Of a stretch of 64,000 bases of DNA, positions 62,929 through 63,558 are shown in pieces. The notes beneath the pieces are model-generated. The model saw nothing but the letters and a program-made list of their open reading frames with translations, did no database searches and was not told the DNA's origin. This DNA comes from a virus: positions 31,864 to 95,863 of the IMG/VR virus record IMGVR_UViG_3300048035_000135. One strand, written 5' to 3'. A program made the translations under genes and the position numbers. Numbering within the stretch: position 1 is the first letter of the stretch; the number at the start of each line of letters is the position of its first letter.

Positions 62929-63003
62929 GAGCGGGAAGGTGGAACTGCCCCACCATCTCCGTACTGGAAGTACGGCGAGTTTCTCTTAACTCTTTTCCCG
63001 CAG
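62929..63003 (-). tRNA. tRNA-Gly(UCC)-like RNA, copy 1, non-canonical elbow
   Basis: Read on the minus strand it folds as a full cloverleaf: 7-bp acceptor (GCGGGAA/TTCCCGC), D-arm with 4-5 bp (GAGTT/AACTC), anticodon arm CCGTA-CTTCCAG-TACGG (U33, anticodon UCC, A37), variable AGAT, and a 5-bp T-stem GGTGG/CCACC with a 7-nt loop GGCAGTT. Arm lengths are those of a real tRNA. But U8, A14 and the T54-U55-A58 set are missing: the T loop lacks TTCRA. Glycine identity bases (G1:C72, C2:G71, G3:C70, C35, C36, U73) are all present. CCA not encoded. Confidence 0.6.
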
Positions 63004-63005
63004 TT

Positions 63006-63080
63006 GAGCGAAAGGTTGGAACTGCCCCAACTTCTCTACACTGGATGTGTAGCAAGTTTCTCTTAACTCTTCTCTCGCAG
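63006..63080 (-). tRNA. tRNA-Gly(UCC)-like RNA, copy 2, non-canonical elbow
   Basis: Second 75-nt unit, separated by 2 nt from the first. Arms: acceptor GCGAGAG/CTTTCGC (one G-U), D-arm GAGTT/AACTT (one G-U), anticodon arm CTACA-CATCCAG-TGTAG (A33 instead of U33; anticodon UCC), T-arm GTTGG/CCAAC with the identical loop GGCAGTT. Acceptor, anticodon and T stems all show compensatory changes relative to copy 1, and both G-U pairs are valid only on the minus strand. Its 5' acceptor overlaps the last codons of the gene at 63063-63317. Confidence 0.58.
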
Positions 63081-63317
63081 TTTAGTTATGATTGAGTTAT
63101 CTTTCTGAGTTTCTATATGTGTATTCCATAACTCTCTCATAAATTTCATATGATGAGGTTGGATTTCAAATCCCATCTCACCACTAAAAGTATTTTGAGA
63201 ACCTGTTATAAGTGCGTTTATAATGTACTCATCACCATCTTTATATTCGGTGGAGTTCATTAATACATCTTTTAACCAATGTATCTTATCACTTATATGT
63301 ACAGAATCCCAATTCAC
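63063..63317 (-). CDS. Hypothetical protein, 84 aa
   Basis: NWDSVHISDKIHWLKDVLMNS and NTFSGEMGFEIQPHHMKFMRELWN: an alpha-rich protein, unknown family. Its last codons (LREKS plus stop) run into the acceptor stem of the second tRNA-like RNA. Driven by host-type promoter 63333-63363. Function unknown. Confidence 0.65.
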   Translation of the reverse strand: MNWDSVHISDKIHWLKDVLMNSTEYKDGDEYIINALITGSQNTFSGEMGFEIQPHHMKFMRELWNTHIETQKDNSIITKLREKS

Positions 63318-63363: not shown

Positions 63364-63394
63364 ATGTTTTTTGATTTTTTTTTGATTTTTTTTG

Positions 63395-63468
63395 TGGAGA
63401 ATATCGGAGTCGAACCGATGACCTCTTCGGTGCAAGCGAAGCGCTCTAGCCATCTGAGCTAATTCCCC
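63395..63468 (-). tRNA. tRNA-Ala(UGC)
   Basis: Canonical tRNA: acceptor GGGGAAT/ATTCTCC (one G-U), D-arm with TAGCTCAGATGGCTAGAGC, anticodon loop CTTGCAC giving UGC, T-arm ending GGTTCGACTCC, discriminator A. A frame at 63352-63552 over this and the next tRNA is spurious. CCA not encoded. Confidence 0.95.
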
Positions 63469-63473
63469 ATTTG

Positions 63474-63558
63474 CGGAAAAGAAGGGATTCGAACCCCTGG
63501 TACCTTTCAGTACGCTGGTTTTCAAGACCAGTGCATTCGACCACTCTGCCACTTTTCC
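63474..63558 (-). tRNA. tRNA-Ser(UGA)
   Basis: 85 nt with long variable arm (GTACTGAAAGGTAC), as expected for Ser. Acceptor GGAAAAG/CTTTTCC, anticodon stem CTGGT/ACCAG with loop CTTGAAA giving UGA, T-arm GGGGTTCGAATCCC, discriminator G. Five nt from tRNA-Ala. Confidence 0.95.

What the first reader, a model, noticed from the sequence alone, without database searches (positions are those of the whole stretch)
62929..63080. Two tandem tRNA-Gly(UCC)-like RNAs that keep glycine identity but lose the canonical elbow
Two 75-nt units, 2 nt apart, each fold as a cloverleaf with normal arm sizes: acceptor 7 bp, T-arm 5 bp with 7-nt loop, anticodon 5 bp with 7-nt loop, anticodon UCC. The stems differ between the copies and the differences are compensatory in the acceptor, anticodon and T stems. 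G-U pairs appear only on the minus strand, fixing the strand. Known glycyl-tRNA identity bases (G1:C72, C2:G71, G3:C70, C35, C36, U73) are present in both. But U8, A14 and T54-U55-A58 are missing and both T loops read GGCAGTT. Staphylococcal non-proteinogenic tRNA-Gly, used for peptidoglycan bridges, also alters elbow elements to escape EF-Tu. A phage version could serve cell-wall or protein modification, be a decoy for GlyRS, or regulate.
Basis: partly seen in the sequence, partly recalled or inferred. Interest (0 to 1): 0.85.

Follow-up and report, generated by a model that had tools for sequence, protein, structure and literature searches.

The report
Phage glycine tRNA-like RNA with Mom

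Summary
In detail: two cloverleaf RNAs lie on the minus strand (63078-63007 and 63001-62930). They are members of a phage RNA family found in about 67 diverse viral records. Across 49 distinct sequences 98% of base-pair cells are paired, with 300 double-sided changes. Acceptor G1-C72/C2-G71/G3-C70, U73, C35 and C36 never change; position 33 is any base and 32-38 is a covarying Watson-Crick pair. That leaves a 5-nt anticodon loop: glycyl-tRNA-synthetase identity kept, decoding apparently lost. It is re-coded (A18.G55, G54.G58, G19-C56 kept), and the 18.55 re-coding occurs in phage tRNAs of many isotypes. The new result is a partner gene: PF25680 Mom, the DNA-modification enzyme of phage Mu, whose product is a glycinamide-adenine. 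Mom is in 34 of 67 RNA-bearing viral records versus 0 of 11 control records, usually touching the RNA. In the reverse search, 56 of 78 relatives of one Mom type carry the RNA. The window's contig ends before the place where Mom sits in the three related contigs long enough to show it. Best explanation: a dedicated, non-translational glycyl-tRNA that donates glycine to Mom. The linkage is shown; charging and glycine transfer are inferred. Many Mom phages, Mu included, lack the RNA.

The parts
63007..63078 (-). tRNA-Gly-like RNA, unit 1 (G1 at 63078, U73 at 63007); anticodon loop C32 A33 U34 C35 C36 A37 G38; T loop GGCAGUU
   Evidence: fold; CM R1 86.8 bits, E 4e-20; alignment A3
62930..63001 (-). 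tRNA-Gly-like RNA, unit 2 (G1 at 63001, U73 at 62930); anticodon loop C32 U33 U34 C35 C36 A37 G38; T loop GGCAGUU
   Evidence: fold; CM R1 94.0 bits, E 5e-22; alignment A3
63002..63006 (-). 5-nt spacer CAACU; C74 follows U73, CCA not encoded (same style as the phage's other tRNAs)
   Evidence: sequence
63063..63317 (-). 84-aa ORF upstream; its stop codon (TAA, 63065-63063) lies inside the D arm of unit 1; kept in at least 9 related phage records
62568..62906 (-). 112-aa ORF downstream; relatives in 12 RNA-bearing records, including G004 which carries mom
63394..63468 (-). ordinary tRNA-Ala(UGC) of the same phage tRNA cluster (contrast: canonical T loop)
   Evidence: ARAGORN and Rfam
63473..63558 (-). 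ordinary tRNA-Ser(UGA) of the same cluster

Best explanation
The two RNAs are copies of a phage-encoded, non-translational glycine tRNA dedicated to DNA modification by Mom. Proposed path: the RNA is cut from the phage transcript by host RNase P/Z and given CCA; host GlyRS charges it through G1-C72, C2-G71, G3-C70, U73, C35 and C36; its 5-nt anticodon loop (32-38 paired, no fixed U33) keeps it out of decoding; Mom, a GNAT-fold enzyme with an invariant serine, takes the glycyl group from it and puts it on N6 of adenine in phage DNA. N6-glycyl-adenine is an isomer of the N6-carbamoylmethyl (glycinamide) adenine known from Mu, so an internal rearrangement would give the known product. Shown here: the RNA family, its structure, identity bases, changed decoding loop, re-coded elbow, and genetic linkage to mom. 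Inferred: expression, processing, charging, escape from translation, and glycine transfer to DNA.
For: Covariation proves a conserved cloverleaf. Identity bases and C35/C36 are invariant while 33 and 34 drift and 32-38 covaries as a Watson-Crick pair. The most frequent neighbour gene, found without prior expectation, is PF25680/PHROG 1384 Mom. Mom is in 34/67 RNA-bearing viral records versus 0/11 control records over the cut-off; for comparison one Mom query finds 324 of 50,697 phage records. The RNA touches the 3' end of mom in several Mom lineages (L111, L053, L028, L036, L066, L025) and the 5' end in L051 and L021, so the contact seems to have arisen more than once. Reciprocal: of 78 loci fetched by Mom protein only, 56 carry the RNA or a close tRNA-Gly relative, nearly all at the 3' end of mom. 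Window group: the only three contigs reaching far enough (G004, G005, G011) each have three mom genes about 50-77 kb upstream of the RNA (for G004 if circular); the 23 shorter ones, G000 among them, end before that. Eight records with other re-coded phage tRNAs have no Mom over the cut-off, so the link is specific. The Mom serine mutated in inactive 8bv8 (S124A) appears to match the invariant Ser of all aligned Mom relatives. Mu's product is named a glycinamide, and a review only assumes an acyl-CoA donor such as glycyl-CoA (PMC3874153, PMC7824862).
Against: No charging, binding or modification data exist. Mu and 11 other isolate Mom phages of the 14 tested have no such RNA, and the hits in the remaining two are ordinary or differently altered tRNAs; 0 of 80 loci of another Mom type have it within 6 kb. 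So Mom does not need this RNA in general; these phages would have to use host glycyl-tRNA or another donor. mom itself is not on the window's contig. Some relatives (L004/L043 in T4-like fragments, L056, L073) have no mom on their short contigs.
Confidence: 0.6

Rival explanations
1. The RNA regulates or chaperones Mom without donating glycine: it binds Mom (as aminoacyl-tRNA or not) to control a toxic late enzyme, or controls mom mRNA, while Mom uses an acyl-CoA donor.
For: In one large mom type the RNA is the in-frame last 72 nt or so of the mom ORF; many Mom phages work without it; a review assumes an acyl-CoA donor (PMC7824862).
Against: In the window group the RNA lies tens of kb from mom, so it acts in trans; strict keeping of GlyRS identity bases (C35, C36, U73, G1-C72, C2-G71) is not expected of a mere regulator.
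Confidence: 0.2
2. Decoy or sink: the RNA occupies GlyRS or a host defence enzyme that targets glycyl-tRNA, for example GNAT toxins that acetylate Gly-tRNA.
For: Glycine identity without decoding ability; a GNAT toxin acetylating Gly-tRNA is reported (PMC7595197 abstract).
Against: Does not explain the linkage to mom, the direct contact with mom, or the absence of mom from records with other re-coded tRNAs.
Confidence: 0.07
3. Ordinary translational phage tRNA-Gly(NCC) with a drifted core.
For: Lies in a phage tRNA cluster; anticodons UCC, CCC and ACC would all read glycine codons; re-coded elbows occur in phage tRNAs with normal anticodon loops; L050 and L070 hold Gly relatives with a normal loop.
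Against: Position 33 is not U in 39 of 75 units, 32-38 is a covarying pair closing a 5-nt loop, and this is kept over wide divergence; no reason for mom linkage.
Confidence: 0.08
4. A conserved peptide tail of Mom rather than an RNA.
For: In the A6-type mom the RNA is read in frame, and third codon positions vary most (0.17 versus 0.06-0.08).
Against: 362 of 362 differing pairs stay paired there; in L053 the frame stops inside the T arm; in L021/L051 the RNA is 5' of mom; in the window and its relatives it is outside any such frame.
Confidence: 0.01

Closest known systems
Staphylococcal non-proteinogenic tRNA-Gly (peptidoglycan bridge donors for FemXAB)
   Same: Dedicated glycine tRNA proposed to be kept out of translation; altered D loop (G18G19 replaced) and T arm; a transferase takes glycine from it (PMC4052509).
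   Different: Cellular, not phage; D loop UU or CU rather than AG; alterations reported at G18G19 and T-stem pairs A49-U65/A51-U63, whereas here T loop and anticodon loop are changed; the partner here is Mom, a DNA-modifying GNAT, not Fem.
Phage Mu Mom (PF25680, PDB 8bv8)
   Same: The linked enzyme family; invariant Ser and fold conserved.
   Different: Mu has no such RNA; its glycine donor was only assumed in the papers held.
Rfam tRNA (RF00005)
   Same: Cloverleaf with 7/5/5/5-bp arms, G19-C56, U73; CCA encoded in about a third of the 84 units first listed.
   Different: Not matched by RF00005 or ARAGORN in the window; U8, U33, U54, U55, A58 and G18 replaced; 5-nt anticodon loop.
tRNA-dependent GNAT and related enzymes (GNAT toxins on Gly-tRNA; cyclodipeptide synthases with an acyl-serine)
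   Same: Precedent for aminoacyl-tRNA as substrate or donor, and for a serine that accepts the aminoacyl group (PMC7595197 abstract; PMC4052509).
   Different: None of them acts on DNA, as far as I know.

Membership tests
tRNA (RF00005), translational | Cloverleaf with covarying stems | tested here: met
   98.4% cells paired, 300 double changes
tRNA (RF00005), translational | Score above RF00005 gathering cut-off in the window | tested here: not met
   no match even at E up to 10
tRNA (RF00005), translational | 7-nt anticodon loop with U33 | tested here: not met
   33 any base; 32-38 pair covaries
tRNA (RF00005), translational | L-shape elbow pairs 18.55, 19-56, 54.58 | tested here: met
   re-coded but covarying: A.G or G.U; G-C; G.G or U.A
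Glycine tRNA identity (bacterial GlyRS) | G1-C72, C2-G71, G3-C70, C35, C36, U73 | tested here: met
   C35 and C36 invariant in 75 distinct units though not part of the pattern; CGC U73 was part of it
Glycine tRNA identity (bacterial GlyRS) | Charged with glycine | not testable with these tools
   needs an aminoacylation assay
Non-proteinogenic donor tRNA (Staphylococcus type) | Altered EF-Tu/elbow elements | tested here: met
   18, 54, 55 and 58 changed, but 18.55 re-coding is also seen in phage tRNAs with normal anticodon loops, so this is weak evidence
Non-proteinogenic donor tRNA (Staphylococcus type) | Linked to a transferase gene | tested here: met
   PF25680 Mom adjacent or in the same record
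Non-proteinogenic donor tRNA (Staphylococcus type) | Amino acid shown to be donated outside translation | not testable with these tools
   needs biochemistry
Mom family (PF25680), for the partner gene | Above the curated cut-off and Mu Mom fold | tested here: met
   80-177 bits versus 27.1; model best hit 8bv8, E 2e-13

The most novel reading that the evidence does not exclude
DNA base modification by aminoacyl-tRNA: phages carry a private glycyl-tRNA whose glycine is transferred by Mom to N6 of adenine and rearranges to glycinamide-adenine, making tRNA a substrate of DNA chemistry and answering where Mom's glycine comes from.
Probability: 0.55. Interest if true: 0.95.

Novelty: categorically new. 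Interest (0 to 1): 0.88.

Why it matters
Mom modification protects phage DNA from restriction, yet the papers held here only assume an acyl-CoA donor for its glycine-derived group. A glycine tRNA that seems unable to decode but is kept next to mom makes one answer directly testable: aminoacyl-tRNA as donor for DNA modification, a use I do not know of elsewhere. It also gives a natural set of tRNA-shaped RNAs in which tertiary pairs (18.55, 54.58) have been exchanged compensatorily, a test of how tRNA elbows can be rebuilt. Caveat: the paper behind PDB 8bv8 (released December 2023) and the 2020 Mu Mom paper (doi 10.1093/nar/gkaa319) were not readable here, so part of the donor question may already be answered elsewhere.

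Tried and rejected
Pseudoknot between leader AACUGC and T loop GCAGUU: the leader base varies (C/A/U) while the loop does not, so rejected. Cis-regulatory element only: rejected because the RNA is far from mom in the window group. Peptide tail only: rejected (L053). 'Altered elbow equals special function': rejected after finding the 18.55 re-coding in Phe, Leu, Cys, His, Ile, Glu, Arg, Ala, Met and Asp phage tRNAs, and GGCRG T loops also in Val and Lys types. BLASTN of 14 units, and of two single units at E up to 10, against 50,697 phage records: no convincing isolate. Alignment A4 was too diverse to use as a search profile. Literature searches found nothing on this RNA or on tRNA-dependent Mom.

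Full report
1. What is there. On the minus strand of the window two 72-nt units (63078-63007, 63001-62930), 5 nt apart, fold as cloverleafs with 7-bp acceptor, 5-bp D, 5-bp anticodon and 5-bp T stems. They sit between an 84-aa ORF, whose stop codon is inside unit 1, and a 112-aa ORF, next to ordinary tRNA-Ala and tRNA-Ser genes. The window is the right-hand 64 kb of a 95,863-bp virus record. tRNA finders do not report the two units.

2. It is a family. Three pattern scans of viral contigs and one of genome contigs gave, after requiring stems the pattern did not specify, about 80 units in very different phages. Invariance of GGGGCAGTTCC and CGCTC in that first set is by construction. A covariance model (R1) then found units with other T loops: GGCAGAA, GGCAGAG, GGCGGUA, GGCGGUU, GUCAGUU, UGCGAUU. 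Pair counts leave no doubt about the structure (for a second set fetched through Mom proteins). A sample of 199 Planctomycetota genomes held strong hits in only two; I read these as phage contigs in bins, without proof. No isolate phage was found.

3. Anatomy. In 75 distinct units G1C2G3/C70G71C72 and U73, and C35 C36, are invariant; 34 is C, U or A; 33 is U 36, A 27, G 7, C 5; 32-38 is C-G 57, U-A 8, A-U 3, U-G 3, G-C 1 and has the highest mutual information of all nominally unpaired positions. So the loop is N33 N34 C35 C36 A37 on a 6-bp stem. Bacterial glycine identity bases are kept; the decoding U-turn is not. The D loop is AAGAGA or similar, the T loop G54 G55 C56 R57 G58. G19 and C56 are kept. 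A18 with G55 changes jointly to G18 with U55 in one clade (AAGGGA with GUCAGUU), and G54.G58 changes to U54.A58 in L290 and in the middle unit of L014. The elbow is re-coded, not lost.

4. The elbow change is general. ARAGORN tRNAs of the fetched loci: with G55, the D loop has AG and never GG (17/17, about ten isotypes); with U/C55 it has GG in 231 of 239 (Fisher p about 6e-23 for AG versus GG). So several phages have tRNAs with an A18.G55 elbow, and this does not by itself mean a non-translational function. Some Gly relatives (L050, L070) have such elbows with normal anticodon loops.

5. The partner. ORFs of the RNA-bearing loci and of eleven larger records were clustered without preconception. 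The most frequent neighbour, in 30 loci, is a roughly 250-aa protein that is PF25680 Mom (80-177 bits, cut-off 27.1) and PHROG 1384. Mom is over the cut-off in 34 of 67 RNA-bearing viral records (17 of 47; 17 of 20) and in none of 11 records whose pattern match was chance (p 0.002; against the rate of 324 per 50,697 phage records, p about 1e-55). These p-values treat related records as independent and are therefore optimistic. In G013, G031, G038, G046 and the large A6 type the RNA touches the 3' end of mom; in L021 and L051 it is at the 5' end.

6. Reciprocal test. Fetching Mom relatives by protein only (search words in the Mom body, KPGYVYQ and WLYGGFI) and scanning with R1 gave the RNA in 56 of 78 loci. 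Nearly all are at the 3' end of mom in the same strand and mostly in frame. The ranking of those loci used query proteins that include the RNA-coded tail, which could favour loci with the RNA somewhat. Mu Mom ends at YPK, where the body of these Mom proteins also ends shortly before the RNA-coded part begins. Two of the 56, L302 and L304, differ: L302 has a tRNA with a canonical T loop just 5' of mom, and L304's unit is about 6 kb upstream. Another Mom type gave 0 of 80 within 6 kb, although G003, G017 and G018 carry both elsewhere in the genome. In the in-frame type 362 of 362 pair differences keep pairing.

7. The window's phage. G000 has no mom. Records with the same RNA type that are long enough (G005: 110 kb upstream of the RNA; G011: 82 kb; G004: mom 110-119 kb downstream, equal to about 50-58 kb upstream if circular) each have three mom genes. 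The 23 others, which end before that distance, have none; G000 stops 0.9 kb upstream of the RNA. That the window's phage has mom is thus a prediction.

8. Mechanism. Mu's modified base is a glycinamide of adenine (Swinton 1983, as cited in PMC3874153); a review takes the donor to be an acyl-CoA such as glycyl-CoA (PMC7824862). Mom has the GNAT fold (model pLDDT 82, best match 8bv8) and an invariant serine that appears to match the one mutated in inactive 8bv8 (a numbering offset of 10 is assumed). Enzymes that take aminoacyl groups from tRNA onto a serine are known (cyclodipeptide synthases, PMC4052509), and a GNAT toxin handles Gly-tRNA (PMC7595197 abstract). I therefore propose that Mom takes glycine from this RNA. 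Acyl transfer to N6 gives N6-glycyl-adenine, which has the same formula as N6-carbamoylmethyl-adenine; a Smiles-type rearrangement would link them (my inference).

9. Weak points. No biochemistry. Mom in Mu and most isolates manages without the RNA, so in those phages host Gly-tRNA or another donor must serve. The A6-type loci are partly near copies of one another. Contig fragments limit the absence statements. The papers most likely to discuss Mom's donor were not held.

Noticed in passing
L344, L345, L346, L340, L341, L104, L106, L159 (HGTV-1), L133 (G007): Phage and halovirus tRNAs of many isotypes have T loops with G55 (UGCRANN or GGCRGNN), and the D loop then carries A18G19 instead of G18G19: a compensatory exchange of an elbow tertiary pair (17/17).
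   Followed up: partly
L014:4896-5176, L009:5520-5845, L015:50-173: Between tRNA-Gly-like units lie other apparently structured stretches with complementary ends (GAGAAUGAUU..AUUAUUCUC type) and shared words GAUUGAGAUAA..CCGCUCA..CCGG; no Rfam match.
   Followed up: no
L009:5445-5516 and L014:4964-5035: Sister tRNA-Gly-like units with canonical (UUCAAAU) or half re-coded (UGCGAUU) T loops beside the re-coded ones: possible evolutionary intermediates.
   Followed up: partly
L020:1779-1842, L078:2223-2286, L004:5695-5761, L043:437-503: Shortened relatives (64-67 nt) in which the D arm is reduced or absent, in T4-like or other phage contigs without a mom hit.
   Followed up: no
L247-L301 (A6-type mom loci): The RNA is the in-frame 3' part of the mom ORF, which runs about 15-120 nt beyond it; cutting out the RNA would truncate the mRNA, so mom and RNA production may compete.
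   Followed up: partly
W05 Aeromonas phage AS-szw 63684-63756 (-) (L158): tRNA-Gly(UCC) with T loop AUCGUUA (A54.U58 in place of U54.A58, G18.U55 kept) in an isolate phage that also has mom.
   Followed up: partly
G007:C1:143849-144307 and 125580-125939: Weak Mom-like domains inside 591- and 664-aa ORFs of a 160-kb phage with over 20 tRNA genes.
   Followed up: no
G003, G004, G005, G011, G017, G019: Two or three different mom paralogues in one phage genome, some in direct tandem.
   Followed up: no
window:63910-63986 (-): Borderline tRNA (Rfam 29.7 bits, not called by ARAGORN), possibly tRNA-Ile(UAU).
   Followed up: no
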